Shown: positions 7,304 to 51,638 of the stretch, piece after piece
Layout of the letters: every line of letters begins with the position of its first letter
Numbering within the stretch: position 1 is the stretch's first letter
Assembly: GCF_022539505.1 (NCBI RefSeq)
Contig: NC_061514.1
Span: 333,233,090-333,297,089, forward strand
Reading direction: 5' to 3'
Length of the DNA: 64,000 nucleotides
Origin: Lolium rigidum
Taxonomy: Eukaryota > Streptophyta > Magnoliopsida > Poales > Poaceae
The notes under the pieces: model-generated
Databases searched by the model: none
What the model saw: the letters and a program-made list of their open reading frames with translations, nothing else
What the model was told of the DNA's origin: nothing
Program-made: the position numbers and the translations under genes

Positions 7304-7312
7304 TCGAGGCGA

Positions 7313-8114
7313 GAGGTTTTATCACTTGGCACCACTAGTTGAGGAAATTTTATCGCAAAACCACAACTCTAGAAACTTTTTTCATAGAACACCAACATTT
7401 GAGGTAATTGTATCACAAAACACATAAATCTCTACTGGTCCGGCTTGACAAGTAATTAGTTGGCAGTACTTATCTTGAGTGACACCCTATTATCTGTGCT
7501 CTCTCTCCTGAGCATGTTTGTGTGACAATATGACAATATTTGTTACACAATAACATTTGCTACGCACCTGCTGTTTTCCGAGCCACCTCCTCCTCTTCCC
7601 CTCACCTCGCCGCTGCCAGAGAGAGCCGCCGGGATCGGCCGGCACCGGGGTCCGCCACTGCCGGGGTCCACCGGACCAGCACCGCAGCCGGAGCTAGATT
7701 GGGGACTGCAGCTCCAGATCTCGGACATGGGTGTGCCACCCGTCGGCCAAACGAGCAGCAGATCGGAGAGATCCCCGCCGCCGTCGTCCTTGGGAACCGC
7801 GCAGGCTTTCCCGGTGGCTCTCTCTGGCAGCGATGAGGTGAGGGGGAGAGGAGGGGGGCTCGGACAACAGCAGGTGCGTAGCAAATATTATTGTGTAACA
7901 AATATTGTCATATTGTATCAGGAGAGAGTACATATAATTGGGTGTCACTCAAGATAACTAGTGCCAACTAATTACTTGTCAAGCCGGACCAGTAGAGATT
8001 TATGTGTTTTGTGATACAATTACCCTAAATGTTGGTGTTCTGCGAATTTTTTTTCTAGAGTTGTGGTTTTGCGATAAAATTTCCTCAACTAGTGGTGCTA
8101 AGTGATAAAACCTC
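7313..8114. mobile_element. Mutator-like MITE with ~310-bp TIRs and 9-bp TSD
   Basis: The outer ends are inverted copies beginning GAGGTTTTATCACTT, and the inverted similarity extends about 310 bp inward on each side (to about 7625 and from about 7800), leaving a core of about 170 bp. The element is flanked by the identical 9-bp direct repeat TCGAGGCGA at 7304-7312 and 8115-8123. Long TIRs plus a 9-bp duplication identify a Mutator-superfamily element. It is non-autonomous: the open frames reading outward are mirror images of the TIRs. The arms have a few substitutions and indels, so it is not brand new. Confidence 0.9.
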
Positions 8115-8123
8115 TCGAGGCGA

Positions 8124-8608
8124 AGTGGAGTATAGTAGGCCTTGACGAGGCATGTGGGATTGTGGCAACAGCAAACGCCCTGCACCAGCTTCCTCGTGGG
8201 CGACAGTATCGAGCCAACCGTCACCACCACCGCAACCCTCCCACTGCCTCCGCCGCCGCTCATCCTCGTCGCCGGGAATCGCCTCCGGCTAGCTCGCCAC
8301 TACCAGTCACCAGCGCAACGAAATGGATAGGTGGGAGGAAATCGGAACGATTAGCGAGCTGTGGGGATAAGAGGGCATGCAGCAAGCAACCTGAGCAGCT
8401 GCCGTGCGCCGGACGGAGATGGATGTCAGGCGGCTGGAAAACCAATGCGAGGAACCGCCTGGGACTGGGAGGCCCACTGGCCACCGCCCACGACCTGCGC
8501 GACCGCTAATGGAGAACCGGCCAAATCCGGAACAGCCGCCAACTATCCCTATGCACGCTCACCATGCACCGGCAAAATGCTGAGAGAGCTGCGATTGCAA
8601 CATCACTA
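8124..8608. other. Unassigned GC-rich segment
   Basis: A GC-rich stretch lies between the Mutator-like MITE and the Harbinger element. Open frames exist on both strands but none shows a recognisable domain or a consistent exon structure. It could be decayed genic sequence. Confidence 0.3.
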
Positions 8609-8959
8609 GAGCATCTCCAGCCGTCGCGCCGGATAAAAAAATCGTTCCAGCCGCATCCCTAAAACTCGAATTTTGTCCGGCCCGCCTCGATACGGTGTCT
8701 GGCGCCCCGAGCCCGTCCCCGTCCCACAGGGGACACTCCGGGGACGCCGGACACACCGAAACGCGAGGCGGGGAGTGGCGGAGCCGACCCGTCAGCGGCA
8801 CAATAAATTTTAACCTAATCGTCGCCTACCTCGCGACGGAAGTTATTGGCTTTGCAGCAACGGTGCAGTTCCCGCAGAGGCGCAGCGACGCGTCCCGTCG
8901 CGCCTAGCTCTGCGTGCCGGCGTTAATGAGCGCCACCGCTCCTCCGCCTCCCTCCGGCC

Positions 8960-8967
8960 TATAAAAG
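8960..8967 (+). promoter_or_regulatory. TATA box of the B3 gene
   Basis: TATAAAAG lies 89 bp upstream of the B3 start codon. It is followed by a pyrimidine-rich leader with two AAACCCTAG motifs (telo-box-like) near 8998 and 9020, a normal arrangement for an expressed plant gene. Confidence 0.6.
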
Positions 8968-9055
8968 GGCCGCCTCTCATCGTTCCTCTCACACACAAAC
9001 CCTAGCGCCTCTCTCCCAAACCCTAGCCGCCACCATCTCAATAAGACTCGACGCT

Positions 9056-9529
9056 ATGTCTGGTAGAGGCGGAGGCCGACCTCGCGGCCGTGGTCGTGGT
9101 CGTGGCCGCGGCAGAGCTGAACGCTCGCCGTCGCCTCCCACGCCGTCGGCTTCATCGTCGGAGATGGACGTGGAGCCAGACGTGCTGTTCGAGTTCGTCC
9201 TCGTCCTCAAGGGCGACCCGCGCGGCATCCAAAGGCTGCCGGACTCCTTCGCCGACTACGTCGCTGGCGACGACCGCCCGCGCACGATGCATCTGCGGGA
9301 GGCTGCGGGAGGCTACTACCGGTGGATCGTCGACGTGATCTACGACGCGCGCGGCAAGATGTACCTCAACATCGGCTGGGAGAAGTTCACGCGGCACCAC
9401 AGCCTCGAAGCCGGCTTCATCCTCCTGTTCTCCTACTTCGGCGACAGGGACATGAGTGTCAAGGTCTTCGACGAGACGCGCTGCCGCCGGGACTACCACG
9501 GCGACAACACCGATGAGGAGGACAACTGA
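9056..9529 (+). CDS. Small B3-domain protein with RG-rich N-terminus
   Basis: An uninterrupted 157-residue frame starts at the first ATG after the TATA box. Residues 1-20 are an Arg/Gly tract (GRGGGRPRGRGRGRGRGR), then a Ser/Pro/acid linker, then a B3-type domain at about residues 40-140. In that domain I see the RLPDSFADYV segment (first beta strands), TMHLREAAGGYYRW, VDVIYDARGKMYLNIGWEKF and the ending ILLFSYFGDRDMSVKVFDE, all classic for REM-like B3 proteins. The tail is acidic (DEEDN). B3 domains bind DNA in the nucleus. The RG tract could add RNA or DNA affinity, which is inference. The whole gene lies within a Harbinger-like element. High GC (codon third positions mostly G/C) contrasts with the AT-rich ends of the element. 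Confidence 0.8.
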   Translation: MSGRGGGRPRGRGRGRGRGRAERSPSPPTPSASSSEMDVEPDVLFEFVLVLKGDPRGIQRLPDSFADYVAGDDRPRTMHLREAAGGYYRWIVDVIYDARGKMYLNIGWEKFTRHHSLEAGFILLFSYFGDRDMSVKVFDETRCRRDYHGDNTDEEDN

Positions 9530-10065
9530 TGATGCAGAGTGTTGTTTCTTCGCAGCGAACACGTGCACGGAAGTTTCTGGATGTTCGCCTCATCGGTAGA
9601 ACCAACAAGGGCACCATCCTCCCGCTGGATTTTCCAGTTTGGGTGACTGGGTGTGCCCTCGAGTGTTCTTTCTTAGCAGCGAACACAGGAAACCCCCTTC
9701 GATGCACGGCCTAGTTAGGTTTAGTTTTTTTGCAAAATTTTATATTTGTGTCCACCATGGTTCAAAATATGTATTAATTTGTGGAAAACCATGTTCCAAA
9801 TTATGTCTTCCTGTAAACCACATTCCCAATTATGTATTAGTTTGTGGAAATTGAAATAAAAATGCCAAAAAAAAGTATTTTAAATGTTTGGGGAGACGTT
9901 TGGGGGACGCGGCTGGGGAGCGACGTCCTCCAAACGCGGCACGAACAAAACACGTCCCCAAACGCTCAATCCGGAGTAGTTTGGGGAACGCTTGGGGGAC
10001 ACGGCTGGAGATGCTCTTAAGGTGTTTAGGTAAAGATGATCAAGGTAACTTTCTTGGAGCATCAG

Positions 10066-10361
10066 CCATGATCAAGGTAACAATACGAAACCTCCACTAT
10101 CGGCATCAGAAAAATCAAGAGATGAAAAATGGAGGAGAGGTAAAACTCAGCTCTAACGAGAAAAACTTGAACAACAATACGAAACCTCCACTATCGGCAT
10201 CAGAAAAATCAAGAGATAAAAAGTGGAGGAGAGGTAAAACTCAGTTCTAACGAGAAAAACTTGAACAGGAGAAGGATCACAACAATAAGAAACCTCCACG
10301 GCTCCACTATTGGCATCAGAAAAATCAAGAGATAAAAAATGGAGGAGAGGTAAAACTCAGT
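10066..10361. repeat. Three imperfect direct repeats (~94-108 bp) beside the gap
   Basis: The phrase CCTCCACTATCGGCATCAG and the following GGAGGAGAGGTAAAACTCAG recur at about 10091, 10185 and 10293-10305, giving three units spaced about 94 and 108 bp. The third unit runs straight into the N gap. One further unit in inverse orientation is at about 56263-56375. The identity of the repeat is unknown to me. Collapse of more copies at the gap is likely. Confidence 0.75.
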
Positions 10362-10461
10362 NNNNNNNNNNNNNNNNNNNNNNNNNNNNNNNNNNNNNNN
10401 NNNNNNNNNNNNNNNNNNNNNNNNNNNNNNNNNNNNNNNNNNNNNNNNNNNNNNNNNNNNN
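10362..10461. other. Assembly gap (100 N)
   Basis: Exactly 100 N bases, the conventional placeholder for a gap of unknown size. The left side is a tandem repeat; the right side enters an LTR about 100 bp inside its expected start, so the true LTR start is inside the gap. Confidence 0.99.
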
Positions 10462-12914: not shown

Positions 12915-14220
12915 CTTATGGGAGACAACCCATGTTTTTACTACAGTACTTTTATTTTATATTTGAGTCTTGGAAGTTGTTTACTACTGTAGCAACCTCT
13001 CCTTATCTTAGTTTTGTGCATTGTTGTGCCAAGTAAAGTCTTTGATAGTAAGGTTCATACTAGATTTGGATTACTGCGCAGAAACAGATTTCTTTGCTGT
13101 CACGAATTTCGACCTGCCTCTCTGTAGGTAGCTCAGAAAAATATGCCAATTTACGTGCGTGATCCTCAGATATGTACGCAACTTTCATTCAATTTTGGAA
13201 TTTTCATTTGAGCAAGTCTGGTGCCTCAATAAAATCCGTCTTTACGGACTGTTCTGTTTTGACAGATTCTGCCTTTTATTTCGCATTGCCTCTTTTGCTA
13301 TGATGGATGAATTTCTTTGTTACATTAATGTCCAGTAGCTTTGTGCAATGTCCAGAAGTGTTAAGAATGATTATGTCACCTCTGAACATGTGAATTTTTA
13401 TTATGCACTAACCCTCTAATGAGTTGTTTCGAGTTTGGTGTGGAGGAAGTTTTCAAGGATCAAGAGAGGAGGATGATACAATATGATCAAGGAGAGTGAA
13501 AGCTCTAAGCTTGGGGATGCCCCGGTGGTTCACCCCTGCATATTTTAAGAAGACTCAAGCGTCTAAGCTTGGGGATGCCCAAGGCATCCCCTTCTTCATC
13601 GACAACATTATCGGGTTCCTCCCCGAAACTATATTTTTATTCCATCACATCTTATGTGCTTTGCTTGGAGCGTCGGTTTGTTTTTGTTTTTGTTTTTGTT
13701 TGAATAAAATGGATCCTAGCATTCATTGTGTGGGAGAGAGACACGCTCCGTTGTTTCATATGGACAAATATGTCCTTAGGCTTTACTCATAGTATTCATG
13801 GCGAAGGTTGAATCTTCTTCGTTAAATTGTTATATGGTTGGAATCGGGAAATGCTACATGTAGTAATTCTAAAATGTCTTGAATAATTTGATACTTGGCA
13901 ATTGTTGTGCTCATGTTTAAGCTCTTGCATCATATACTTTTCACCTATTAATGAAGAAACACGAAGAGCTTGCTAAAATTTGGTTTGCATATTTGGTCTC
14001 TCTAAAGTCTAGATAATTTCTAGTATTGAGTTTGAACAACAAGAAAGACGGTGTAGAGTCTTATAATGTTTACAATATGTCTTTTATGTGAGTTTTGCTG
14101 CACCGGTTCATCCTTGTGTTTGTTTCAAAAAACCTTGCTAGCCTAAATCTTGTATCGAGAGGGAATACTTCTCATGCATCCAAAATCCTTGAGCCAACCA
14201 CTATGCCATTTGTGTCCACC
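12915..14220 (+). repeat. Internal 3' region, copy 1 (repeated at 15110-16425)
   Basis: From GGGAGA(C/T)AACCCATG through CTACAGTACTTTTATTTT, the GCTTGGGGATGCC motifs (near 13507 and 13567), to CCATACCTACCTA, this segment is nearly identical to 15110-16425. The two copies are direct repeats about 2.2 kb apart and belong to the two fused elements. Differences are scattered substitutions and short indels. Confidence 0.8.
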
Positions 14221-14242
14221 ATACCTACCTAAGCAGTTTTCC

Positions 14243-14258
14243 GGCGCCGTTGCCGGGG
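14243..14258 (+). other. Second tRNA-Asp primer-binding site without an LTR
   Basis: GGCGCCGTTGCCGGGG, followed by AGGAAAGGTAAAAGG as in the intact minus-strand element at about 40990-41017. No LTR precedes it: the left flank is the internal region of the first element, which marks the fusion junction at about 14233. Confidence 0.8.
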
Positions 14259-14379
14259 AGGAAAGGTAAAAGGCTCTCATACTCCGGTCCTAGGTAAAGT
14301 ACTTTTTCTGCCTGTGTGCTCAAGCTATTTCCTTAGATCCGTGTAGTGCATCTTTTGCTTTTGTTTACCTAGTTAGGCA

Positions 14380-15095
14380 TAATGACAACAATGAGCTTCT
14401 TATTCCTGATTTAAGACATGGATGGTTTGATGCGAGAATTAAAACCTATGAACATATTAGTGTGAACGCTTTGAACACCATTGTTGCTAATTATATGGAA
14501 CTAACTTGAAGCATGGATGGTTTGATGAAAATGATCTCTTAGCCAGAATCGTATTGAGGAGAAAGTTTATGTTGATTATGATATTGCCTCCATTTATGAT
14601 GATTATAATGATAGTGGTCTTTGGAAGCCTACTATGGTGGATAAGAGTTTATTGATGATAATACTATGTCTCCACACGTATTGAGGAGAATAGTAATTAC
14701 TGTTGATTTAATATGCCTCCCACTTACAACTGATTATAATTGATAGTACTGATGCTTGTTACCTACTATGGTGGAATAAAATGCTTTATGTGATACTTAT
14801 ATTGTTGAGTTTGTTCACTTGATGCCAGAAATTATTATGTATGAGAGAGGAAAACATACTTTGTCAGAAGTTTGTCTCTACTAAAACATATCTATATGTA
14901 AAATTTTTGAGTACATTGTTTTATCCTTCTATGCTTATATGCATGCTTCTTCATGAATTTGTTTATTTACAAGATTCCTATGCATAGGAGTGAGTTGACT
15001 TAAATTTGTTTGAATCGTTCTTGATGCTCTCTTTTGCTTCAAATACTATTTCTTGCGAGTGCATCATTAAAACTGCTGAGCCCATCTTAACGGCT
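14380..15095 (+). pseudogene. Degenerate gag-like ORF of second element
   Basis: The stretch is the decayed counterpart of the intact minus-strand ORF at 40157-40867. The phrase for NNELLIPDLRHGWFDA and the later repeated P-P-x-Y/F-D-D-Y segments can be traced, but frames shift repeatedly. Ends are approximate. Confidence 0.65.
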
Positions 15096-17510
15096 ATAAA
15101 AAAGAACTTCTTGGGAGATAACCCATGTGTTTATTTTGCTACAGTACTTTTATTTTGTATTTGAGTCTTGGAAGTTGTTACTACTGTAGCAACCTCTCCT
15201 TATCTTATTTTATTGCATTGTTGTGCCAAGTAAAGTCTTTGATAGAAAGGTTGATACTAGATTTGGATTGTTGCGCAGTAACAGATTTCTTTGCTGTCCC
15301 GAATTTCGACCTGCCTCTCTGTAGGTAGCTCAGAAAAATATGCCAATTTACGTGCGTGATCCTCAGATATGTACGCAACTTTCATTAAATTTGGGCATTT
15401 TCATTTGAGCAAGTCTGGTGCCTCAATAAAATCCATCTTTACGGACTGTTCTGTTTTGACAGATTCTGCCTTTTATTTTGCATTGCTTCTTTCGTTGTGT
15501 TGGGTGGATTTCTTTGTTCCATTACCTTCCAGTAGCTTTGGGCAATGTCCAGAAGTGTTAAGAATGATTGTGTCACCTCTGAACATGTGAAGTTTTGATT
15601 ATGCACTAACCCTCTAATGAGTTTGTTTCGAGTTTGGTGTGGAGGAAGTTTTCAAGGGTCAAGAGAGGAGGATGATATACTATGATCAAGAAGAGTGAAG
15701 AGTCTAAGCTTGGGGATGCCTTGGTGGTTCACCCCTGCATATTTTAAGAAGACTCAAGCGTCTAAGCTTGGGGATGCCCAAGGCATCCCCTTCTTCATCG
15801 ACAACTTATCAGATTCCTTCTCTTGAAACTATATTTTTATTCGGTCACATCTTATGTACTTTACTTGGAGCGTCTGTGTGCTTTTATTTTCGTTTTGTTA
15901 TTTTCATTCTCTGAATAAATACATGCTTGTGTGGGAGAGAGACACGCTCCGCTGGTTCATATGAACACATGTGTTCTTAGCTTTTAATGTTCATGGCGAT
16001 GGTTGAAACTGCTTCGTTAATTGTTATATGGTTGGAATCGGGAAATGCTACATGTAGTAATTGGTAAAATGTCTTGGATAATGTGATACTTGGCAATTGT
16101 TGTGCTCATGTTTAAGCGCTTGCATCATATACTTTGCACCCATTAATGAAGAAATACATAGAGCTTGCTAAAATTTGGTTTGCATATTTGGTCTCTCTAA
16201 AGTCTAGATAATTTCTAGTATTGAGTTTGAACAACAAGGAAGACGGTGTAGAGTCTTATAATGTTTACAATATGTCTTTTATGTGAGTTTTGTCTGCACC
16301 GTTCATCCTTGTGTTTGTTTCAAATAACCTTGCTAGCCTAAACCTTGTATCGAGAGGGAATACTTCTCATGCATCCAAAATCCTTGAGCCAACCACTATG
16401 CCATTTGTGTCCACCATACCTACCTACTACATGGTATTTCTCCGCCATTCCAAAGTAAATTGCTTGAGTGCTACCTTTAAATAATTCAAAATTTATCACC
16501 TCTGATTTGTGTCAATGTTTTATAGCTCATGAGGAAGTATGTGGTGTTTTATCTTTCGATCTTGTCATTTACTTCGACAGACTTTCACAATGGACTAGTG
16601 GCTTCATCCGCTTATCCAACAATTTTGCAAAAAGAGTCGGCAATGGGGTTCCCGACCCGATTAATTAACTTGCATTAATAATTCTCTTCACATGTTTTGC
16701 TCGATTCATCAAGTAAGCAACTTAATTTTGCAAATAGACACTCCTTCATGGTATGTGATTGTTGGAAGGCACCCGAGGATTCGGTTAGCCATGGCTTGTG
16801 TAAGCAAAAGGTTGGGAGGAGTGTCATCCATAAATAATAAAACTAAAGTACATGTGTAAACAAAAGAGAAGAGGGATGATCTACCTTGCTGGTAGAGATA
16901 ACGTCCTTCATGGGAGCCGCTCTTGAAAGTCTGGTTGATGAGGTAGTTAGAGTGCCCACTACCATTCGTTGACAACAACAAACACCTCTCAAAATTTTAC
17001 TTTTATGCTAGCACAAATATAGCAATCGATGCTTTCCTCTTTGAAGGACCTTTCTTTTACTTTTATGTTGAGTCAGTTCACCTATTTCTCTCCACCTCAA
17101 GAAGCAAACACTTGTGTGAACTGTGCATTGATTCCTACATACTTGCATATTGCACTTGTTATATTACTCTATGTTGACAATTATCCATGAGATATACATG
17201 TTACAAGTTGAAAGCAACCGCTGAAACTTAATCTTCCATTGTGTTGCTTCAATACCTCTACTTTAAATTATTGCTTTATGAGTTAACTCTTATGCAAGAC
17301 TTATTGATGCTTGTCTTGAAGTGCTATTCATGAAAAGTCTTTGCTTTATGATTCAGCTTGTTTACTCATGTCATTACCATTGTTTTGATCGCTGCATTCA
17401 TTACATATGTTTACAATAGTATGATCAAGGTTATGATGGCATGTCACTCCGTAAATTATCTTTGTTATCGTTTACCTGCTCGGCACGAGCAGAACTAAGC
17501 TTGGGGATGC

Positions 17511-18969
17511 CGATACATCTCCGACGTATCGATAATTTCTTATGTTCCATGCCACATTATTGATGATATCTACATGTTTTATACACATTATATGTCTTAT
17601 TTATGCGTTTTCCGGAACTAACCTATTGACGAGATGCCGAAGGGCCGCTTCTCGTTTTCTCGCTGTTTTTGGTTCCAGAAATCCTAGTAAGGAAATATTC
17701 TCGGAATCGGACGAAATCAACGCCCAGCATCTTAGAATCCCCGGAAGCATCCAGAACACCCGAGAGTCGCCAGAGGGGGGACACAAGCCCCCCAGATGAT
17801 AGGCCGGCGCGGCCCAGGGGTGGCCCGCGCCCCCCTATGGTGTCGTCGCCCCTTCGACCTCCTGACGCCGCCTCTTCGCCTATATAAAGCCCCTCGACCT
17901 AAAACCTCGATACGGGAAAAGCCACGGTACGAGAAACCTTCCAGAGCCGCCGCCATCGCGAAGCCAAGATCTGGGGACAGGAGTCTCCGTTCCGCACGCC
18001 GCCGGGACGGGGAAGTGCCCCGGAAGGCTTCTCCATCGACACCACCGCCATCTTCATCAACGCTGCTCGTCTCCCATGAGGAGGGAGTAGTTCTCCATCG
18101 AGGCTCGGGGCTGTACCGGTAGCTATGTGGTTAATCTCTCTCCTATGTACTTCAATACAATGATCTCATGAGCTGCTTTACATGATTGAGATCCATATGA
18201 TGAGCTTTGTATCGCTACTAGTTGTGTGCTACTCATGTGATGTTATTAAAGTAGTCTATTCCTCCTGCATGGTGTAAAGGTGACTAGTGTGTGCACCGTG
18301 TGGTTCTTGTCGTAGGCTATGATCATGATCTCTTGTAGATTGTGAAGTTAATTATCATTATGATAGTATTGATGTGATCTATTCCTTCTTCATAGTGTAA
18401 TGTGGACAGTGTGTGCGCTATGTTAGTTCTTGGTTTATTTTGCAATGATCTATTATGCTCTAAGGTTATTTAAATATGAACATTGAATTGTGGAGCTTGT
18501 TAACTCCGGCATTGAGGGTTCGTGTAATCCTACGCAATGTGTTCATCATCCAACAAAAGAGTGTATGTAGCACATATGAGAAAGAGTTATTTATTATGCG
18601 ATCAATGTTGAGAGTGTCCACTAGTGAAAATGTAATCCCTAGGCCTTGTTCCTAAATACTGCTATCGCTGCTTGTTTACTGTTTTACTGCATTACTACTG
18701 CTGCGTTGCCACTGCTCATACTTATTTATACCACCCGTATTTCACTATCTCTTCGCCGAACTAGTGCACCTATTAGGTGTGTTGGGGACACAAGAGACTT
18801 CTTGCTTTGTGGTTGCAGGGTTGCATGAGAGGGATATCTTTGACCTCTTCCTCCCTGAGTTCGATAAACCTTGGGTGATCCACTTAAGGGAAACTTGCTG
18901 CTGTTCTACAAACCTCTGCTCTTGGAGGCCCAACACTGTCTACAAGAATAGAAGCTCCCGTAGACATCA
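17511..18969 (+). repeat. LTR type B (3' LTR)
   Basis: The LTR starts at CGATACATCTCCGACG (expected TGATACGTCTCC, mutated) straight after the GCTTGGGGATGC tract and ends ...GTAGACATCA at 18969. It matches, in opposite orientation, the LTRs at 35972-37677 and 41028-42736. A TATATAAA box at 17881-17888 lies in the expected promoter position. It is about 250 bp shorter than its minus-strand relatives. Confidence 0.8.
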
Positions 18970-29679: not shown

Positions 29680-30093
29680 ATGTAAGAGCAGGTGACCGTG
29701 GTGCTTGTGCTGGTCGTGGTGGTGTACAAGTAAGCAACGCGAGGCGATCTAGCAGTTGGTTTAGCTACCTAGCACTTGGTAGCTGGCCGCTCGATGTTTC
29801 GCACGTTTTTGTTTCGTCCGGAGTTTTCGGTCGGGCCTCGGGAACCCGGGATGGTCTGGGCTCTTCGGATGGATGAAAGACCTAATCCGAACGAAAACGA
29901 GAAGTCGGTAGCACGGTTGAACCGTTTTCGTCCATTCGAATGAAAAAATGGCGTTCTGAGGGTCTCGTTAGGGAGATGGCTGGAGATGCTCTAAGAGCAG
30001 CTGACCGTGGTGCTTGTGCTGGTCGTGGTGTGCAAGTGAGCAACGCGAGCCGATCCAGCAGTTGGTTAAGCTAGCTAGCACTTGGTAGCTGGC
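29680..30093. repeat. ~105-bp direct repeat flanking a half Harbinger end
   Basis: The stretch beginning AGAGCAGGTGACCGTGGTGC (29683) recurs at 29995 as AGAGCAGCTGACCGTGGTGC, and similarity continues through GCACTTGGTAGCTGGCCG. Immediately before the second copy lies GGCTGGAGATGCTCTAA, a PIF/Harbinger right terminus, but no left terminus is present. The arrangement suggests a truncated MITE inside a small duplication. Confidence 0.55.
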
Positions 30094-35069: not shown

Positions 35070-35971
35070 GCTGTTATTGAGTGAATAGCATAAAACCACC
35101 ACATTGGTGGCCAAATTTACGAAAGACCACCATTTTTGGTTTGCGGGACATAAAACCACCACATTTCAGTTGGTTTTTTTGCCGAACACGCAAATGACGA
35201 GTTTGCAGCGAATTGAAACTGAATCTGACCATCTGACCCCACCCACTCTGTTGACGTGTCCAATTCTGGACGGAAGAAGAAAACGGCCGTTAACGGCCGG
35301 TCGGACGTGGGCCCCTCCGCGCGCCCAGATAGGATTAGGGTTCGGACGGTTGGGACGGTGAGTCACTCGTTCCTCTCTCTCTCCTTTCGTACACGGATGG
35401 CGGCGTTCACTGCTGACTCGGAGGATGGTGGCGGCGGTGGCGGCGCAGGCGGCTGTGGCGTCACACGCGAGGACGAGGCGGGTGGCGAGTGTGCGGACGG
35501 GAGGCTCAGGATCTCCACCACGGCGGCGGTGGGGCAGCCATCGCTGGAGTAGAGAGCAGCCACCGCTTTTGCGAGAGCCGTGGTCGCTTCACCCTGCAAG
35601 ACCAGCCACCGGTGGGCGTCAAGTTTCGGCGGCGACGTCGAGTAAGCTCACTCCTCTCTCCCCTCCCCTGCCACCGGTGTTGTAGCGTACTGTGTGCTAT
35701 AGATGATTTGCAGTAGGCATGATAGGCATCGAGTAAGCTCAGTTCTCATCTCTGTCTTGATAATGTGAACAATTATTTGCAGTTTGGATGATGATATCTG
35801 GGAGATTAGATTTCATTTTAGTGGTGAAGATAATTTGGAGAAGACTATTAGCAGTTCAGACATCACTGTATTGAATTTGCTAGCTCTGGTAGAACAACGT
35901 GGCTATGGCATCAGAGACTACATGTACTATGTTAAAGAAAGAGGCAAAGGGAAGGAATTAATGGAGGTAGT

Positions 35972-37677
35972 TGATGTCTACGGGTGCTTCTATTCTTGTA
36001 GACAGTGTTGGGCCTCCAAGAGCAGAGGTTTGTAGAACAGCAGCAAGTTTTCCCTTAAGTGGATCACCCAAGGTTTATCGAACTCAGGGAGGAAGAGGTC
36101 AAAGATATCCCTCTCATGCAACCCTGCAACCACAAAGCAAGAAGTCTCCTGTGTCCCCAACACACCTAATAGGTGCACTAGTTCGGCGAAGAGATAGTGA
36201 AATACAGGTGGTATGAATGAATATGAGCAAGTAGTAACGGCGCCGTAAAATAGCTTGCTGGCGTGTAGTTGATGGTGGTAATATGGTAGCAGTAGTAACG
36301 CAAGAAAACAAGTAAACAAGCAGCGATAGCGATATTTAGGAACAAGGCCTAGGGATTACACTTTCACTAGTGGACACTCTCAACATTGATCACATAACAG
36401 AATAGATAAATGCATACTCTACACTCTCTTGTTGGATGATGAACACATTGTGTAGGATTACACGAACCCTCAATGCCGGAGTTAACAAGCTCCACAATTC
36501 AATGTTCATATTTAAATAACCTTAGAGTGCATGAAAGATCAACACGACTAAACCAAGTACTAACACAGCATGCACACTGTCACCTTCACACTATGTAGGA
36601 GGAATAGATCACATCAATACCATCATAGCAATAGTTAACTTCATAATCTACAAGAGATCACAATCATAGCCTACGCCAAGTACTAACACGGATGCACACA
36701 CTCGTCACCATTACACCGTGCGGGAGGAATAAAACTACTTTAATAACATCACTAGAGTAGCACATAGATAAATTGTGATACAAAACACATTGCAATCATA
36801 AAGAGATATAAATAAGCACTTCACTACGCCATTCATAACGGTGAATAAGTATTCTGTGAAATATAGCCTAAGAGACCCACACGGTGCACACACTCGTCAC
36901 CTTTACACACGTGGGACAAGGAGTCTCCGGAGATCACATAAGTAAAACTCACTTGACTAGCATAATGACATCTAGATTACAAGCATCATCATATGAATCT
37001 CAATCATGTAAGGCAGCTCATGAGATTATTGTATTGAAGCACATAGGAGAGAGATTAACCACATAGCTACCGGTACAGCCCCGAGCCTCGATGGAGAACT
37101 ACTCCCTCCTCATGGGAGACAGCAGCGTTGATGAAGATGGCGGTGGTGTCGATGGAGGAGCCTTCCGGGGGCACTTTCCCGCCTCGGCAGCGTGCCGGAA
37201 CAGAGACTCCTGTCCCCCAGATCTTGGCTTCGCGATGGCGGCGGCTCTGGAAGGTTTCTCGTACCGTGGCTTTTTTCGTATCGAGGTTTTAGGTCCAGGG
37301 GCTTCTTATAGGCGAAGAGGCGGCGTCAGAGGGTCGAAGAGGCGGCGACACCATAGGGTGGCGCGGGCCACCCCAGGCCGCGCCGGCCTATGGTCCCGTG
37401 GGCTTGTGCCCCCTCTCTGGCGGTTCTCGGGTGTTCTGGATGCTTCCGGGCAAAATAGGATGCTGGGTCTTGATTTCGTCCGATTCCGAGAATATTTCCT
37501 TACTAGGGTTTCGGAACCAAAAACAACAGAAAACAGGAACCGGCCCTTCGGCATCTCGTCAATAGGTTAGTTCCGGAAAACGCATAAATATGACATATAA
37601 TGTGCATAAAACATGTAGATATCATCAATAATGTGGCATGGAACATAAGAAATTATCGATACGTCGGAGACGTATCA
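35972..37677 (-). repeat. 3' LTR of nested retrotransposon
   Basis: On the minus strand it runs TGATACGTCTCCGACG ... GTAGACATCA. It is nearly identical to 41028-42736. The differences are discussed under findings because they cluster at CAG/CTG sites. Confidence 0.92.
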
Positions 37678-40156
37678 GCATCCCCAAGCTTAGTTCCTCG
37701 CTCGTCCCGAGCAGGTAAACGATAAACAAAGATAATTTCTGGAGTGACATGCCATCATAAACTTGATCATATTGTAAACATATGTAATGAATGCAGCGAT
37801 CAAAACAATGGTAATGACATGAGTAAACAACTGAATCATAAAGCAATGACTTTTCATGAATAGCACTTTCAAGACAGGCATCAATAAGTCTTGCATAAGA
37901 GTTAATTCATAAAGCAATAATTTAAAGTAAAGACATTGAAGCAACACAATGGAAGATTAAGTTTCAGCGGTTGCTTTCAACTTGTAACATGTATATCTCA
38001 TGGATAATTGTCAATGCAAAGCAATATAACAAGTGCAATAAGCAAGTATGTAAGAATCAATGCACAGTTCACACAAGTGTTTGCTTCTTGAGGTGGAGAG
38101 AGATAGGCGAACTGACTCAACATAAAAGGTAAAAGAATGGTCCTTCAAAGAGGAAAGCATTGATTGCTATATTTGTGTTAGAGCTTTGGTTTTGAAAACA
38201 TAAGGAGAGCATAAAAGTAAAATTTTGAGAGGTGTTTGTTGTTGTCAACGAATGGTAGTGGGCACTCTAACTACCTTATCAACCAGACTTTCAAGAGCGG
38301 CTCCCATGAAGGACGTTATCTCTACCAAGCAAGGTAGATCATCCCTCTTCTCTTTTGTTTACACATGTACTTTAGTTTAGTTTTTATTTATTTATGGATG
38401 ACACTCCTCCCAACCTTTTGCTTACACAAGCCATGGCTAACCGAATCCTCGGGTGCCTTCCAACATTCACATACCATGAAGGAGTGTCTATTTGCAAAAT
38501 TAAGTTGCTTACTGATGAATCAGAGCAAAACATGTGAAGAGAACTATTAATGAAAGTTAATTAATCGGGGCTGGGAACCCCATTGCCAGCTCTTTTTGCA
38601 AAATTATTGGATAAGCGGATAAAGCCACTAGTCCATTGTGAAAGTCTGTCAGAAGTAAATGACAAGATCGAAAGATAAAACACCACATACTTCCTCATGA
38701 GCTATAAAACATTGACACAAATCAGAGGTGATAAATTTTGAATTATTTAAAGGTAGCACTCAAGCAATTTACTTTGGAATGGCGGAGAAATACCATGTAG
38801 TAGGTAGGTATGGTGGACACAAATGGCATAGTGGTTGGCTCAAGGATTTTGGATGCATGAGAAGTATTCCCTCTCGATACAAGGCTTAGGCTAGCAAGGT
38901 TATTTGAAACAAACACAAGGATGAACCGGTGCAGCAAAACTCACATAAAAGACATATTGTAAACATTATAAGACTCTACACCGTCTTCCTTGTTGTTCAA
39001 AACTCAATACTAGAAATTATCTAGACTTTAGAGAGACCAATTATGCAAACCAAATTTTAGCAAGCTCTATGTATTTCTTCATTAATAGGTGCAAAGTATA
39101 TGATGCAAGAGCTTAAACATGAGCACAACAATTGCCAAGTATCAAATTATTCAAGACATTCTACCAATTACTACATGTAGCATTTTCCGTTTCCAACCAT
39201 ATAAAAATGAACGAAGCAGTTTCAACCTTTGCCATGAACATTAAAAGCTAAGAACACATGTGTTCATATGAACCAGCGGAGCGTGTCTCTCTCCCACACA
39301 AGCATGTATTTATTCAGAGAATGAAAATAACAAAACAAAAATAAAAGCACACAGACGCTCCAAGTAAAGTACATAAGATGTGACCGAATAAAAATATAGT
39401 TTCAGGGGAGGAACCTGATAATGTTGTCGATGAAGAAGGGGATGCCTTGGGCATCCCCAAGCTTATATGCTTGAGACTTCTTGAAATATGCAGGGGTGAA
39501 CCACCGGGGCATCCCCAAGCTTAGACTTTTCACTCTTCTTGATCATAGTATATCATCCTCCTCTCTTGACCCTTGAAAACTTCCTCCACACCAAACTCGA
39601 AACAAACTCATTAGAGGGTTAGTGCACAATAAAAATTAACATGTTCAGAGGTGACACAATCATTCTTAACACTTCTGGACATTGCATAAAGCTACTGGAC
39701 ATTAATGGATCAAAGAAATTCATCCAACATAGCAAAAGAGGCAATGCGAAATAAAAGGCAGAATCTGTCAAAACAGAACAGTCCGTAAAGATGGATTTTA
39801 TTAAGGCACCAGACTTCCTCAAATGAAAATGCCCAAATTGAATGAAAGTTGCGTACATATCTGAGGATCACTCACGTAAATTGGCATAATTTTCTGAGTT
39901 ACCTACAGAGAATTAGACCCAGATTCGTGACAGAAAAGAAATCTGTTTCTGCGCAGTAATCCAAATCTAGTATTCACTTTACTATCAAAGACTTTACTTG
40001 ACACAACAAAACACAAAACTAAGATAAGGAGAGGTTGCTACAGTTGTAAACAACTTCCAAGACACAAATATAAAACAAATTACTGTAGCAAAATAACACA
40101 TGGGTTATCTCCCAAGAAGTTCTTTCTTTATAGCCATTAAGATGGGCTCAGCAGTT

Positions 40157-41017: not shown

Positions 41018-41027
41018 GAAAATAGCT

Positions 41028-42736
41028 TGATGTCTACGGGTGCTTCTATTCTTGTAGACAGTGTTGGGCCTCCAAGAGCAGAGGTTTGTAGAACAGCAGC
41101 AAGTTTTCCCTTAAGTGGATCACCCAAGGTTTATCGAACTCGGGGAGGAAGAGGTCAAAGATATCCCTCTCATGCAACCCTGCAACCACAAAGCAAGAAG
41201 TCTCTTGTGTCCCCAACACACCTAATAGGTGCACTAGTTCGGCGAAGAGATAGTGAAATACAGGTGGTATGAATGAATATGAGCAGTAGTAACGGCGCCG
41301 TGAAAATAGCTTGCTGGCGTGTAGTTGATGGTGGTAATATGGTAGCGATAGTAACGCAATGAAAACAGTAAACAAGCAGCGATAGCGATATTTAGGAACA
41401 AGGCCTAGGGATTACACTTTCACTAGTGGACACTCTCAACATTGATCACATAACGGAATAGATAAATGCATACTCTACACTCTCTTGTTGGATGATGAAC
41501 ACATTGTGTAGGATTACACGAACCCTCAATGCCGGAGTTAACAAGCTCCACAATTCAATGTTCATATTTAAATAACCTTAGAGTGCATGAAAGATCAACA
41601 CGACTAAACCAAGTACTAACACAAGCATGCACACTCGTCACCTTCACACTATGTAGGAGGAATAGATCACATCAATACCATCATAGCAATAGTTAACTTC
41701 ATAATCTACAAGAGATCACAATCATAGCCTACGCCAAGTACTAACACGGATGCACACACTGTCACCATTACACCGTGCAGGAGGAATAAAACTACTTTAA
41801 TAACATCACTAGAGTAGCACATAGATAAATTGTGATACAAAACACATTGCAATCATAAAGAGATATAAATAAGCACTTCACTACGCCATTCATAATAGTG
41901 AATAAGTATTCTGTGAAATATAGCCTAAGAGACCCACACGGTGCACACACTGTCACCTTTACACACGTGGGACAAGGAGTCTCCGGAGATCACATAAGTA
42001 AAACTCACTTGACTAGCATAATGACATCTAGATTACAAGCATCATCATATGAATCTCAATCATGTAAGGCAGCTCATGAGATTATTGTATTGAAGCACAT
42101 AGGAGAGAGATTAACCACATAGCTACCGGTACAGCCCCGAGCCTCGATGGAGAACTACTCCCTCCTCATGGGAGACAAGCAGCGTTGATGAAGATGGCGG
42201 TGGTGTCGATGGAGGAGCCTTCCGGGGGCACTTCCCCGCCCCGGCAGCGTGCCGGAACAGAGACTCCTGTCCCCCAGATCTTGGCTTCGCGATGGCGGCG
42301 GCTCTGGAAGGTTTCTCGTACCGTGGCTTTTTTCGTATCGAGGTTTTAGGTCCAGGGGCTTCTTATAGGCGAAGAGGCGGCGTCAGAGGGTCGAAGAGGC
42401 GGCGACACCATAGGGTGGCGCGGGCCACCCCCAGGCCGCGCCGGCCTATGGTCCCGTGGGCCTGTGCCCCCTCTCTGGCGGTTCTCGGGTGTTCTGGATG
42501 CTTCCGGGCAAAATAGGATGCTGGGTCTTGATTTCATCCGATTCCGAGAATATTTCCTTACTAGGGTTTCTGGAACCAAAAACAGCAGAAAACAGGAACT
42601 GGCCCTTCGGCATCTCGTCAATAGGTTAGTTCCGGAAAACGCATAAATATGACATATAATGTGCATAAAACATGTAGATATCATCAATAATGTGGCATGG
42701 AACATAAGAAATTATCGATACGTCGGAGACGTATCA
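41028..42736 (-). repeat. 5' LTR of nested retrotransposon
   Basis: In element orientation it starts at 42736 (TGATACGTCTCC) and ends at 41028 (...GACATCA). The pair with 35972-37677 is full length. Confidence 0.92.
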
Positions 42737-45700
42737 GTAGTTGATAGCATGGCAAAGGTACATGAAATGCTTGAGCTTTATGACAGTGAGAAGGTACTCA
42801 ATATAACAGTGGTGAAGCACAAAGTAGAATGGCCAATTGGTTTGAACAGAGAAGATGTTGAAGCTACATATGTAGTTGATGTACCTGTTGTGCTGTCAGA
42901 TAACATGTCAGGGGTCAATTTCATGGCAGATGAAGTGGAGGAGGTGTATCCAGTGGCAATTGACTACAATGATGTTCTGTACATTGGCACACAACACATC
43001 AGCACCATGAATAAAGGAAAGGGAAAAGAGGTTGCTGAATCAGATCAAGATGAAGACTTGGAAGATGGATATGATAGTGATAAGGAGGTAAATGATAATG
43101 AGGTTGGTGAATATGAGGGTGAGTACATGTACTATGATGGTGAGTACATACCTGAACTAGCAGCAGCTGAGAGGGAGGCAGCTACTGAAGCAGAATTGGA
43201 GCTAATGAGGGAGCTTAGGAAGAAGAGGCATGCAACACAGAATGCAGAGAATTAAGAAATAATGGAGAAGTTGCAAAAAATGAAGGAACCGAAGGCTGAC
43301 CCATTTCTTCATTTTGAAGGTGACACTGATGTTGAAGAGATTTTTGAACCAGAGGAAGATTCAGAGGTTGAGGAAATTACAGAGAAAATCATCCCACTGA
43401 AGAACAAGGCATCAAAGTGTGGTCCTACTAGTAGCTCACATCATGAGGAGGTAAAATTTGAAGAAGACAATTATTTCATGCCTACATCTGATGAAGACAG
43501 TAGCCTGATGATCTTGTAGACAGTGATGATGATGGGTTTGTGTCCAAATTTGTACCTGTCAGTGGAAGGAAGAGGAGGGTGAAGAAAATGAAGAAAAGAG
43601 TTTGGTATGATGAAACCAGGGCAAACCCACATGAATAGATAGCTATGAAGCTTTGTTTCACTGATGTATACCAGTTCAGGAGGGCTCTAAGGACATACCA
43701 CATAGCTCAGCTTAGGAACTTTCAGTACTGGAGGAATGACAGTGATAGAATCATAGTTCTTTGTCCTAGAGCAGATAAGGGTTGTCCCTTCTACATTAGT
43801 GCCTCAAAGATTGCACATGAGAAGACTTTTTGCATAAGGAAAATTCTAGGGGTTCACACTTGTATTGCCTCTGGACATCACACAAAGGTAACTATTGATT
43901 GGCTTGCCAAACAGTCTGAGCAGGCTGTTAGAATTGATCCAAACACTACTGTTGACACACTCATTGACAATGCAAAGCAGAAGTGGGGTGTACCAGTCCC
44001 CAAGAGCAAAGCTTACAGAGCAAGGAAGAAGGCATTTGTTGTTGTTATGGGTGACCAGAAGGCACAATACACAAGGTTGAGGGACTATCTTCAGGCTGTC
44101 CTTGACACTAATCTTGACAGTAGGTGTATTGTGACAACAAAGCATTTAGTGGAGCATCCTAGTACAAACCCAAGGTTTCATGGGTTATTTTACTGTCTGA
44201 ATGCATCAAAGGAAGGCTTTCTTAATGGCTGCAGGCCCTTCATAGGTAATTATTCTTGTAAATGCATTACTTTTTTCCTAGCAGAAACTTTTCTTTGTTA
44301 GCTTACCCACACAATGACACAGGGGTAGATGGATGCTTCATTAAATTGAGCACTGGCCAAAAAATACTTGCTCCAATAGGTAGAGATGGGAACAATAACA
44401 TTTTCCCTATTGCATTTGGTGTGGTGTACAAGGAAGACACTGCCAGTTGGTTATGGTTTCTGACTCAGCTTAGGTACTATATTGGGGAGTCTGGAAAATT
44501 TGGAATGTACACAATTATTTTTTATAGGCAAAAGGTTAGTGCAGTAACATATAATTTGTCTATTACAGTTCATTTCTCTTTGCTTTAAAAGGAAACAAAC
44601 AGTAACAATTGTTTTGTTCATGTTTGCAGGGACTTCTCAAAGCTGTATCACAAGTTTTCCCACATTCTCCTCATAGGTTCTGTATGAGGCATATTTATGC
44701 CAACTTCCAATCTGCTGGATTCAGAGAGCCAAAGCTGAAGAAGCACATGGATGCAGCTAGTTATTGTTACACAAAACCAGAATTTGACAGAGCAATGGAT
44801 GCTATGAAGGCAGATTGTGAGGAGGCTTATAATTAGCTCATGCAGATTCCTGTAGAGACATGGGCCAGGCATGCTTTTGATACAAACTTCAAAACAGATC
44901 TTGTTGTGAATAATATTTCATAAGTGTTCAACAAAATGATCCTGGATGTGAGGAATAAGCCTATCAGAACAATGCTAGAAGGGCTAAGGAATAAAGTCAT
45001 GGTAAAGAACAGTGGGACAAGAGAGAAGACAGAGAGAACCAGATGGAAGATCACTCCACACTATATTGAGAAGTTGGAAGAAGCAAAGAGGTGGTCAAGG
45101 GAATGCACTGCAAAGAATAGTGATGTTGACCTGTGGCAAGTTAGCAACAACAAAAGAAATTGTGCAGTCAACCTAAAGAACCACACTTGCACCTGTAGGA
45201 AATGGGATATCACTGGAGTACCTTGTAGTCATGCAGTTGCTGCAATTATGAAAGTGAGACAAGCATCCGAGAGGACTATGTACATGAGTTCTTCAAGAAG
45301 CCACTGTACAAAGAAGCCTACAAACATGTTGTGTACCCTGTGCCTGGTCCAGATGATTGGAAAAAGACAGAGACTGATGACATAGACCCACCTGTTTTCA
45401 GAGAGAAGCCATGAAGGAAACAAGTTAAAAGAAGAAAGGGACAATTTGAAGTTCCAGCACCAAGAGACACTTCTAGGATGGCCAGTATTACTTGCAGCAA
45501 CTGCAAGGTTGTTGACCATAGGTACACTAGTTGCCAGGCACCTCTGAAGCCACAGTTGCAAGTTAGGAAGAATAACCACCAGGTAATTTTTTTGTATGTT
45601 TAAGCCATGTACACTACTTGCTTTTGAACAATATTCACTTTATTTCATATTCATATAGTACAAGGCAAAGTGATGAGGGCAACACTTCAGCATCTGCAAG

Positions 45701-45956: not shown

Positions 45957-46296
45957 TGCATAACCTGATGAATTTGGCATGTTTAAGCATGTTTAAGACT
46001 ATGTTGATCCAAACTATGTTGTCATTTCAAATTTGAGACTATGTTGTACTGTATGGGTGAAACTCTATATGTGTGAACCTGTTAAGACTATGTTCTAAAA
46101 TGATGTTTCAGACTATCTTGGTACTTGCTGTTGGTAGTTGTTGTTTCAAAATGTTGCAACTGATGCTCTTAAGATTAAGTTTGAGACTATGTTGGTAGTT
46201 GTTGTTGGTATTTGCTGTTTCAAAATGTTCCAACTTATGCTCTTAAAATAGTGTACATGTTGTAGATGGGCAAATTGGTGTACATGTTGTAGATGA
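45957..46296. other. Non-coding spacer inside Mutator-like element
   Basis: AT-rich, with several GACTATGTT/GAGACTATGTTG repeats in the 3' region of the transposase gene. No coding exon. Confidence 0.4.
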
Positions 46297-47045
46297 CCAA
46301 AATGGTCGACACCCCTCGGAAAACCCTCGAGGCTTTTAAAAAGCCAAAGAGCCTCTGGATGATCTAAAATTGTCGACACCTCTCGGAAAACCCTCGAGGG
46401 TTTTAAATAACCATAGAGCCTCTCGGTGATCTAAAATGGTCGACACCTCTCGGAAAACCCTCGAGGGTTTTAAATAACCATAGAGCCTCTCGATGATCTA
46501 AAATGGTCGACACCTCTCGGAAAACCCTCGAGGGTTTTAAATAACCATAGAGCCTCTCGATGATCTAAAATGGTCGACGCCTCTCGCAAAACCCTCGAGG
46601 GTTTTAAATAACCATAGAGCCTCTCGATGATCTAAAATGATCGATACCCCTCGGAAAACCCTCGAGGCTTCTTAAAACCACATACATGATCTATCTGAGC
46701 TAAAATAGTCGATACCCCTCGGAAAACCATCGAGGCTTCTTAAAACATCATACATGATCTATATTAGCTAAAATAGTCGATACCCCTCGGAAAACCCTCG
46801 AGGCTTCTTGAAATCACATACATGATCTATATGAGCTAAAATAGTCGATACCCCTCGGAAAACCATCGAGGCTTCTTAAAACATCATACATGATCTATAT
46901 TAGCTAAAATAGTCGATACCCCTCGGAAAACCCTCGAGGCTTCTTAAAACCACATACATGATATATATGAGCTAAAATAGTCGATACACCTCGGAAAACC
47001 ATCGAGGCTTCTTAAACCATCATATATGACCTAAAATTTACAGCA
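46297..47045. repeat. Minisatellite, 11 units of 67-68 bp
   Basis: Units can be phased on the GTCGA core at 46305, 46372, 46439, 46506, 46573, 46640, 46708, 46776, 46844, 46912 and 46980. The first five intervals are 67 bp and the next five 68 bp. Each unit contains CCTCGGAAAACC and TCGAGG followed by a TTTTAAA/TTCTTAAA stretch. The first six share CCATAGAGCCTCTCGATGAT; the last five alternate between two variants (ACCATCGAGG with ATCATACAT, and ACCCTCGAGG with CACATACAT), a 136-bp higher-order period. It lies between the two genes of the Mutator-like element. Confidence 0.95.
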
Positions 47046-47272
47046 ATCACAGTTATGAACAACACACAGTTAAACAGCAACACGGAGTTCTAAACCAACA
47101 CAAGATTCAACATAACAACAGGGGTACATAGAGTTCAATGGAACAACACTAACTGTTCATAATAGGGGTACATAGAGTTCAATGCTACAACACTAACAGT
47201 TCGTAGGGCTACAAATTACCAATACACAAATACTTATGGGTAGACAATACTACATCACTGTCACATCTTACT

Positions 47273-48303: not shown

Positions 48304-49918
48304 AGGTGCGAAGTCCTAATTACAAACAAAACCTTCAATTCCACCAAATCGACCAGAAAAGGAGAGGAAATCGACAAGAAATCAAAATTCCCAAATTTGC
48401 CAAAACCCTAACCCTAGATGCACAGGTTGAATCAACCTACTTACCCCTGGCCAGGAAAGAGTCGTGCTCGACGACTCGCCGTCGTTCCAACTGGGCATTG
48501 ATGGCCGGCTGGCAGAATAGCAGCGGCGGCAAGCGGGAGCAGAGCGACAGATTGACGGGAGAGGAGAGACTGAGCGAGAGTGACGGGAGAGGAGAGACTG
48601 AGCGACAGAGTAACGTCTCTTTGCACACGTCCACACACTGGTGGGCCCTAAACCAACCGGCTGTTAACGGCCGTTACCACGTCAGCAGAGTGGGTGGGGT
48701 CAGATGGTCAGATTCAGTGTCAATTTGCTGCAAACTCGTCATTTGCGTGTTCGGCAAAAAACCAACTGAAATGTGGTGGTTTTATGTCCCGCAAACCAAA
48801 AGTGGTGGTCTTTCTTAAATTTGACCACCAATGTGGTGGTTTTATGCTATTCACTCGCTGTTATTTGGCCAACAAAATCACCTCGTCTCCTTAAAGTTAT
48901 CTCTTAGTACTAAAGAAATGTTTTACAAGTTGATGGGTTCTGTAGTACCACTATTACAAGATTGCATGAAATCTCCTAGCCTTCCTAGGTACTAAGTCTG
49001 ATATGGATGATTATAACAAGATAAATTATGCGAGAGACGACATGTCCAGAGAAGTTCCCGTCATGTCTTGCCGAAAAAGCCTAAAAACCGTGCCAACCTT
49101 TGGTTTTGTTTGAGGGGCCACAGGTGAAAAGCGAGAGCATGCATAAACAGGGGCAACCTAACACGATGTACAAAGACCAACCCTTCAAATCCACAACCTA
49201 ATTACAGCCTAAATTAGGTCTTGGGCGGCCATTACCGCCAGCCGAGGTTAGCACAAACCTACACCTAAAAGTGAGCGTTTAATAGGGAAAAGAACCAAAC
49301 AAACAACTTATACCACTAGCCAGTGTAGCCTGTTTCATGCAAGCATGAGTGACCCACAATTTTTTTTCTCGAAATTAACCGAGCAACTCTATTTATTCTG
49401 TGGTGAGTTACAGTACTCTATTCCTTTCGAGGTTTCTAGAAAGAGAAGTGTGAGCCACTCAGTCCTCAAAACCGGGGGACATGCCATGTAAATTTTGTCG
49501 TCGAGTCTCCAATGGTGAGGAGAAATGGGAGCGAATAATTGTATTTGTGGGGAAGCTTGTAGAGATGGTCAATGTGGGGTTCATGTGGCATTGCCATTGA
49601 GAGTGAGAGGTATGCATCTAGGTTCGTTCGTCTCGCTTATTTTATGCATATACCGATTTATTTTATTGGACTATCACTTATGTCCCTAGTCTATAAAAGA
49701 AATGATTCCGAGAACCATGGCCGGTCTCACTCTCACTCTCAAGTCTCACTCTCACTCTCAGATCTGACGGTGCTCAACCTTCATTCTCACTAGCTCTCTC
49801 AAGTCCTAGAAACCATGGCCGGTCTCACTCTCACTCTCAAGTCTCACTCTCACTCTCAGATCTGACGGTGCTCAACCTTCATTCTCACTAGCTCTCAAGC
49901 CCTAGTCTCATAGAAACC

Positions 49919-50760: not shown

Positions 50761-51106
50761 GAATGTTACTAGTGTACGGTTCCGTACGAGACTGGAGGGT
50801 TTTGTTCCCTATCGGGTTCAACGTCAGACATCGCAATCTCTTGGTGGCGGCCGTCGGCCGAGCTATGGTGGTTGCTCATTGGACTACAGCCTTACGTGGC
50901 ACCATGGGAGGATCCACCATCCCTCCAGCCCGGGCGGTCGCCCGGGCTTGGCGGCGGCGGCACGCCTAGTATCATGTGATGTTCTATAACATTTTGTCTC
51001 AAAAAATGGCATGGTAGGCATGTTTGCCCAGGCTTCTAGAAACTTCTAGGTCCGCCCACGGTGGCACTCGAAAGCATCATCGTTGAAGTGCCCTTTCACA
51101 GCCTTA

Positions 51107-51367: not shown

Positions 51368-51638
51368 TTACATTTTTCTTGTTAATGTAGTGGGTGTTGT
51401 TTTTCTTTTTTGTCTTATAATAAGGCGAGACAGTGTGGTGATTCGATGTTAACTTTGATCACGAGGGTTGGCTCGTGTGGGGGTGTAGCCTCATGACTGG
51501 CGTGTTGCTCGTGTGGGGGTGTAGTATCATTGTTGGAAAAAGATACAGAGAGGCGATTTACACAAAAATAACCCAAAAGTGAAAGAAAAGCACAGACTAA
51601 CCCTCCAGCGAAACTATTTCACCAATCTAACCCTTTTG

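What the first reader, a model, noticed from the sequence alone, without database searches (positions are those of the whole stretch)
8609..10016. Intact B3-domain gene riding inside a Harbinger-like element
Seen: perfect GAGCATCTCCAGCCG inverted termini enclose a TATA box, leader and an uninterrupted 157-residue frame with a clear B3 domain and RG-rich start, and no transposase. Known: PIF/Harbinger MITEs are common in grasses, and B3/REM genes are expanded in grass genomes. Inference: the element may disperse a ready-made DNA-binding gene, which could explain small B3 gene families and might even link the B3 protein to its own element's termini. The frame has no stop or shift, unlike almost every other transposon gene in this window, which hints at selection or recent spread.
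Basis: partly seen in the sequence, partly recalled or inferred. Interest (0 to 1): 0.75.

Follow-up and report, generated by a model that had tools for sequence, protein, structure and literature searches.

The report
Ryegrass jumping element carrying B3 gene
A small jumping DNA element in a ryegrass-like plant genome carries a complete gene for a B3 DNA-binding protein, and relatives of that gene are scattered over the chromosomes of ryegrass, so a transposon appears to have multiplied a regulator-like gene.

Summary
8609-10016 is a 1,408-bp element with exact 15-bp inverted ends, a TATA box, one uninterrupted 157-codon RG-B3 frame (9056-9529) and a poly(A) signal. The B3 domain is supported by Pfam and by a structure model. 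Its flanks are CTA/TTA, not an exact TWA duplication. The frame belongs to a large family: 89 protein clusters, 67 of them Lolium multiflorum, on seven contigs of 245-433 Mb. A search with translations of the two ends gave 11 proteins. In 10 of them unrelated residues give way to family sequence at the TIR (nine clear, one decayed), and all 10 junctions fit TTA/TAA. Two L. perenne members continue into what looks like a Harbinger transposase. Best reading: a non-autonomous, Pack-type PIF/Harbinger element that amplified a complete B3 gene in Poeae grasses. Substitutions among diverged copies show purifying selection on B3; among close copies the signal is weak and mixed. Not shown: another copy with both ends plus B3 in one DNA piece, expression, binding to the ends, or a host progenitor. 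Host DNA could not be searched.

The parts
8606..8608 (.). left flanking triplet CTA (TTA expected)
8609..8623 (+). left terminal inverted repeat GAGCATCTCCAGCCG
8624..8847 (+). 5' leader shared with other family members: P0132-P0140 match from about 8626 to 8772-8847; a 24-33 bp stretch present after the TIR in most of them is missing here
8960..8966 (+). TATAAAA box, 96 bp before the ATG
9056..9529 (+). RG-B3 frame, 157 aa, single exon
9179..9475 (+). B3 domain (residues about 42-140 of the protein)
   Evidence: Pfam 59-140; confident part of the model 41-140
9530..9683 (+). 3' untranslated part that follows the B3 frame in other gene models too
9855..9860 (+). AATAAA poly(A) signal
9869..10001 (+). 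3' subterminal region; 9869-9958 shared with P0141 and P0142
10002..10016 (-). right terminal inverted repeat
10017..10019 (.). right flanking triplet TTA

Best explanation
It is a non-autonomous, gene-carrying (Pack-type) PIF/Harbinger element of a Lolium/Poeae family. It most likely moves when a transposase made by related, transposase-bearing members of the same family acts on the shared GAGCATCTCC ends and inserts the element at TTA/TAA. Its cargo is a complete single-exon gene for an RG-B3 DNA-binding protein. The ATG lies 447 bp inside the element, about where other members of the family begin their own ORFs, so the transposon's 5' end probably supplies part of the promoter. Repeated amplification built a large dispersed gene family. 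Shown: ends, frame, B3 fold, dispersal of the gene, shared family ends with TWA-compatible junctions. Partly shown: the family link to a transposase. Inferred: mobilisation in trans, promoter use, capture from a host gene, and that most other B3 copies have both ends.
For: Anatomy. Dispersal: 89 clusters with 181 member sequences, 67 clusters L. multiflorum, on seven contigs of 245-433 Mb plus two small ones (sum); 42 further clusters. Non-coding parts travel with the gene: of the 89 proteins, 12 gene models read on into the 3' untranslated part and one, P0028, has the 5' leader (8701-8802) before B3. Boundary: of the 11 proteins, 10 contain a junction where unrelated residues (no BLAST similarity among those compared at E 0.01) give way to family sequence at the TIR; 10 of 10 are codon-compatible with TTA or TAA, each with only 4-8 of 64 triplets. 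Family transposase: P0139 and P0140 run from the same 5' end into a protein whose P0140 version shares 17 of 25 residues (E 4e-8) with P0086, which has PF04827 Plant_tran (E 3.6e-20). ORF starts lie 395 (P0136), 461 (P0135) and 464 nt (P0139, P0140) from the TIR if unspliced, 447 nt here.
Against: This copy has CTA/TTA flanks, not an exact duplication. No second copy was seen with TIR, leader, B3 and second TIR in one piece; the chain is assembled from overlapping pieces of different copies, and about 9684-9868 is not bridged. The 10 junction proteins do not contain the B3 domain, and each shows one side of one insertion only. The P0138 junction is weak: its end has decayed to GAGCAT plus a shift. 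P0139 and P0140 match no Pfam or NCBIfam model here and no informative solved structure (P0139); their transposase identity rests on one 25-residue match, a domain label listed (PF28509) and recalled resemblance. No host progenitor was found.
Confidence: 0.85

Rival explanations
1. The RG-B3 gene is a bona fide component of the element family, kept by selection because its protein helps the element (ORF1-like binding of the ends, or interference with silencing), rather than a passive captured passenger.
For: Diverged copies show conservative substitutions in the B3 domain beyond neutral expectation (P <= 0.0003 for 58 proteins; 43 proteins, mean BLOSUM -0.14 against -0.66 +- 0.10, 0 of 60 simulations reach it), while the non-coding leader used as control does not. 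The tree is ladder-like, as a succession of source copies would give. The ORF starts about where other family ORFs start. In gene model P0086 a B3 piece is joined to a PF04827 transposase piece.
Against: P0086 may be an annotation join: P0077 and P0114 join B3 to pieces of a repeat also found in this window at about 17.9-18.1, 37 and 42 kb. Constraint on a host-useful gene family would look the same. No binding or expression data.
Confidence: 0.2
2. An ordinary dispersed host B3 gene family into or beside which Harbinger-type ends inserted by chance at this locus; the element is not the vehicle.
For: No second complete TIR-B3-TIR copy could be read; the junction proteins lack B3; this copy lacks an exact duplication.
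Against: The 5' leader shared by the TIR-bearing family also precedes B3 at another locus (P0028); the 3' untranslated part follows B3 in 12 gene models; the gene, its TATA box and poly(A) signal fit between exact inverted ends; 67 L. multiflorum clusters on seven chromosome-sized contigs are hard to get without a mobile vehicle.
Confidence: 0.08
3. A decaying passenger: a once-functional captured gene, now only relics and neutral copies, with no role for host or element.
For: Close copies differ nearly neutrally (P 0.18-0.55 on BLOSUM mean); CDS and 3' untranslated identities are similar in the 12 models; several gene models are frame-shifted or partial (30 of 131 classed partial or odd).
Against: Family-wide constraint; 46 of 131 proteins keep the full RG-B3 layout and 55 more the full B3 part, though gene annotation favours intact frames; close copies also hit fewer sites than expected (P 0.0003-0.0043).
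Confidence: 0.35

Closest known systems
Pack-TYPE TIR transposons of rice and maize, Harbinger-PIF included (PMC8903248; passages seen)
   Same: Non-autonomous TIR elements carrying coding sequence; the paper annotates Harbinger-PIF elements, most with TTA/TAA duplications, and looks for Pack-TYPE elements in this superfamily.
   Different: Here the cargo is a complete gene with TATA box, full frame and poly(A) signal, in a family of more than 100 member sequences; the exact duplication is lost in this copy.
Ping/Pong and the MITE mPing, PIF/Harbinger (PMC2836001; passages seen)
   Same: Short ends, 3-bp TAA target, small members mobilised by proteins of related elements.
   Different: Their coding elements encode transposase and a Myb-like ORF1; this element encodes neither but a B3 protein.
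Plant B3 domain proteins At1g16640 and VRN1 (solved structures 1yel, 4i1k)
   Same: Same fold and detectable sequence similarity.
   Different: RG-rich head, single B3 domain of a Lolium/Poeae family, carried by a transposon.
REM B3 proteins VDD, VAL, REM12, REM13 that recruit Pol IV with GDE1 (PMC12270911; abstract and outline seen)
   Same: B3-type plant DNA-binding proteins; relevant because they direct silencing to chosen sites.
   Different: Host genes of Arabidopsis; whether the present protein is a REM or binds anything was not tested.

Membership tests
PIF/Harbinger superfamily | short terminal inverted repeats | tested here: met
   15 bp exact, 17 bp with the neighbouring bases
PIF/Harbinger superfamily | 3-bp TWA duplication at this copy | tested here: not met
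   CTA left, TTA right: one base off an exact TTA duplication
PIF/Harbinger superfamily | TWA target site in the family | tested here: met
   10 of 10 junctions codon-compatible with TTA or TAA; one side of each insertion only, so the duplication itself is not seen
PIF/Harbinger superfamily | elements with the same ends encode a Harbinger transposase | tested here: inconclusive
   P0139/P0140 share the 5' end and run into a transposase-like part; link by 17 of 25 residues to a PF04827 protein; no profile match of their own
PIF/Harbinger superfamily | Myb-like ORF1 in coding members | not tested
   no complete coding member could be read; P0136 shows an unidentified ORF behind the same end
Pack-TYPE element | no transposase, gene or gene piece between the ends | tested here: met
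Pack-TYPE element | several copies with the same ends and cargo at unrelated sites | tested here: inconclusive
   cargo with adjoining non-coding parts is shared and ends are shared, but never seen in one and the same other copy
Pack-TYPE element | cargo derived from a host gene | tested here: inconclusive
   no progenitor among the hits
B3 domain proteins | profile above cut-off and B3 fold | tested here: met
REM subfamily of B3 proteins | placement in a tree of B3 subfamilies | not tested
   only nearest structures are known

The most novel reading that the evidence does not exclude
A grass Harbinger lineage has adopted a plant B3 regulator as its own accessory gene: the RG-B3 protein, kept under selection through successive source copies, binds the family's ends or subterminal repeats and either does the DNA-binding work of a Myb-like ORF1 or steers Pol IV-dependent silencing away from the element. 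The evidence does not exclude this.
Probability: 0.15. Interest if true: 0.85.

Novelty: new variant of a known kind. Interest (0 to 1): 0.5.

Why it matters
Gene capture by TIR transposons usually yields gene fragments (recalled; passages on Pack-TYPE elements seen). Here a complete DNA-binding gene with its own signals has apparently been multiplied into a family of more than 100 member sequences in ryegrass. If confirmed, these annotated 'B3 domain-containing' proteins of Lolium are largely transposon cargo, which affects gene counts and transcription-factor surveys, and it gives a testable case of a transposon carrying a regulator that could act on its own copies or on silencing.

Tried and rejected
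Host-genome search (genome search, where 'own') was asked 13 times and never answered, so copy number, duplications and dN/dS at DNA level could not be measured. B3 relatives in viral contigs and genome contigs: none confirmed; a 3'-end DNA pattern in viral contigs: none.

Rejected: reading P0086 (B3 piece plus PF04827) as proof of an autonomous B3 element, because other gene models join B3 to pieces of unrelated repeats (P0077, P0114). Rejected: the open frame as sufficient evidence of present selection. Rejected: P0136 as Harbinger ORF1; it matches no Pfam model even at E 10. The end-sequence paper search gave 45 papers; the 20 listed are not about plant transposons.

Papers on a B3 gene inside a Harbinger element: none seen in the listings (open-licence PubMed Central library only).

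Full report
What is there. The segment 8609-10016 begins and ends with exact 15-bp inverted repeats (17 bp with the neighbouring bases) and otherwise the two ends differ. Inside lie TATAAAA (8960), an ATG-to-stop frame of 157 codons (9056-9529) and AATAAA (9855). The frame has an RG-rich head and a B3 domain (PF02362, E 5.3e-10). By sequence the best solved relative is At1g16640 (E 8.5e-5). The AlphaFold2 model on a 47-row alignment is confident for residues 41-140, and its 20 matches with E <= 0.001 are plant B3 domains. The flanks are CTA and TTA, one base off a TTA duplication.

Host and family. A protein search (only the 7,991 candidates sharing most words were scored) gave 89 clusters, 67 named L. 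multiflorum, 4 L. perenne and 18 without organism. The best is 95% identical, so the window is most likely from Lolium or a near relative. The L. multiflorum hits lie on seven contigs of 245-433 Mb and two small ones. Cluster members add up to 181. A second search with P0078 gave 48 proteins, 42 of them new, with L. multiflorum, L. perenne, one Puccinellia chinampoensis protein (P0090) and unnamed sources; no other genus was named. Of the 131 proteins, 46 have the full RG-B3 layout, 55 the full B3 part without the RG head in the model, and 30 are partial or odd. A tree of 47 rows is ladder-like; the window groups with five L. multiflorum proteins (support 100/98).

Does the gene travel with its surroundings? 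Of the 89 proteins, 12 gene models read on into what is the 3' untranslated part here, up to 9683, and P0028 carries the leader 8701-8802 in front of B3. So non-coding parts on both sides are shared between loci.

Where does the shared unit stop? Five frames of the element's two ends, joined into one query, gave 11 proteins among 2,722 candidates. Nine (P0132-P0140) match the leader from about 8626 to at least 8772, two (P0141, P0142) the 3' end. In ten of the eleven, unrelated residues precede the TIR in the protein; the upstream parts compared show no similarity to each other. Read as codons, all ten junctions fit TTA or TAA, each of them fitting only 4-8 of the 64 possible triplets. The P0138 end is decayed and counts for less. 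This is evidence for the boundary and the TWA target of the family, but these proteins do not include B3.

The family's own coding members. P0139 and P0140 (L. perenne) and P0135 continue from the same 5' end into an ORF beginning MDSDDEM, 461-464 nt from the TIR if unspliced; P0136 continues into a different, unidentified ORF at 395 nt; the B3 ATG lies at 447 nt. P0140 shares 17 of 25 residues (E 4e-8) with P0086, which has the plant transposase domain PF04827. P0139, P0140, P0135 and P0136 match no Pfam model, nor do P0139, P0140 and P0136 match NCBIfam. Reading P0139/P0140 as Harbinger transposase therefore rests on that match, on the label PF28509 listed, and on recalled resemblance.

Selection. 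With only proteins for the other copies, I compared the kinds of amino-acid change with what neutral mutation of the window's codons would give. For 58 proteins at 60-85% identity the changes in the B3 part are more conservative than neutral (-0.18 against -0.49 to -0.58, P <= 0.0003). A simulation allowing multiple hits agrees (43 proteins, -0.14 against -0.66 +- 0.10 and -0.63 +- 0.10, 0 of 60 runs reach it in either setting). Sites hit were not fewer than expected in that set. For the closest copies the first test shows no excess (27 proteins, P 0.18-0.55) but fewer sites hit than expected (P 0.0003-0.0043), and the second a mild excess (37 proteins, -0.25 against -0.62 +- 0.15 or -0.53 +- 0.16), so the signal is weak and mixed. 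The RG head gives P 0.003-0.07 on few changes for close copies and all copies. The leader, as non-coding control, shows none (29 changes, -0.86 against -0.71 to -0.75, P 0.71-0.75). In the 12 read-through models, frame and 3' part are similarly conserved, with scatter both ways. Annotation favours intact, conserved proteins, which could inflate constraint.

Mechanism. PIF/Harbinger transposition needs transposase and a Myb-like ORF1, and small members are moved by the proteins of related elements (PMC2836001, passages). The present element encodes neither, so movement in trans by family members is the simplest account; this is inference. Pack-TYPE elements of the Harbinger-PIF superfamily have been looked for in rice and maize (PMC8903248, passages), so the kind is known. 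What is unusual is a complete DNA-binding gene as cargo, amplified this far and partly conserved. The L. perenne assembly paper lists 1,942 PIF-Harbinger entries of 315,265 (PMC9281035, one passage) and the term 'B3 domain' does not occur in it.

What it could mean. REM-type B3 proteins recruit Pol IV to chosen sites in Arabidopsis (PMC12270911, abstract and outline). A B3 protein encoded by a transposon could therefore matter for the element's own silencing, or could stand in for ORF1's DNA-binding role. Nothing here tests that; I give it 0.15.

Noticed in passing
window 7310-8117: Long foldback just left of the element: arms of about 196 nt at 92% with exact stretches up to 63 bp.
   Followed up: no
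window 29978-29994: A lone end GGCTGGAGATGCTC followed by TAA, like this element's right end, between two direct repeats of about 110 bp; no partner end found within one mismatch.
   Followed up: partly
window 46232-47088: Tandem array with period 67-68 bp.
   Followed up: no
window 35971-37678 and 41027-42737: Direct repeats about 5,056 bp apart, mostly 96-100% identical, probably the two LTRs of a young retrotransposon; related inverted copies at 12951-18893.
   Followed up: no
window 48827-51445 and 53045-55670: Direct repeats about 4.2 kb apart, 95-100% identical in the blocks listed.
   Followed up: no
window 10079-10461: Head-to-tail 94-bp copies running into a 100-base gap of N.
   Followed up: no
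P0136 (metagenome contig): The same 5' end leads into a lysine- and acid-rich ORF that matches no Pfam model: possibly another cargo or accessory gene of the family.
   Followed up: partly
P0077, P0114, P0117, P0086 (L. multiflorum gene models): Annotated genes that join B3 pieces to repeat, reverse-transcriptase-like or transposase pieces; P0077 and P0114 share theirs with this window at about 17.9-18.1, 37 and 42 kb.
   Followed up: partly
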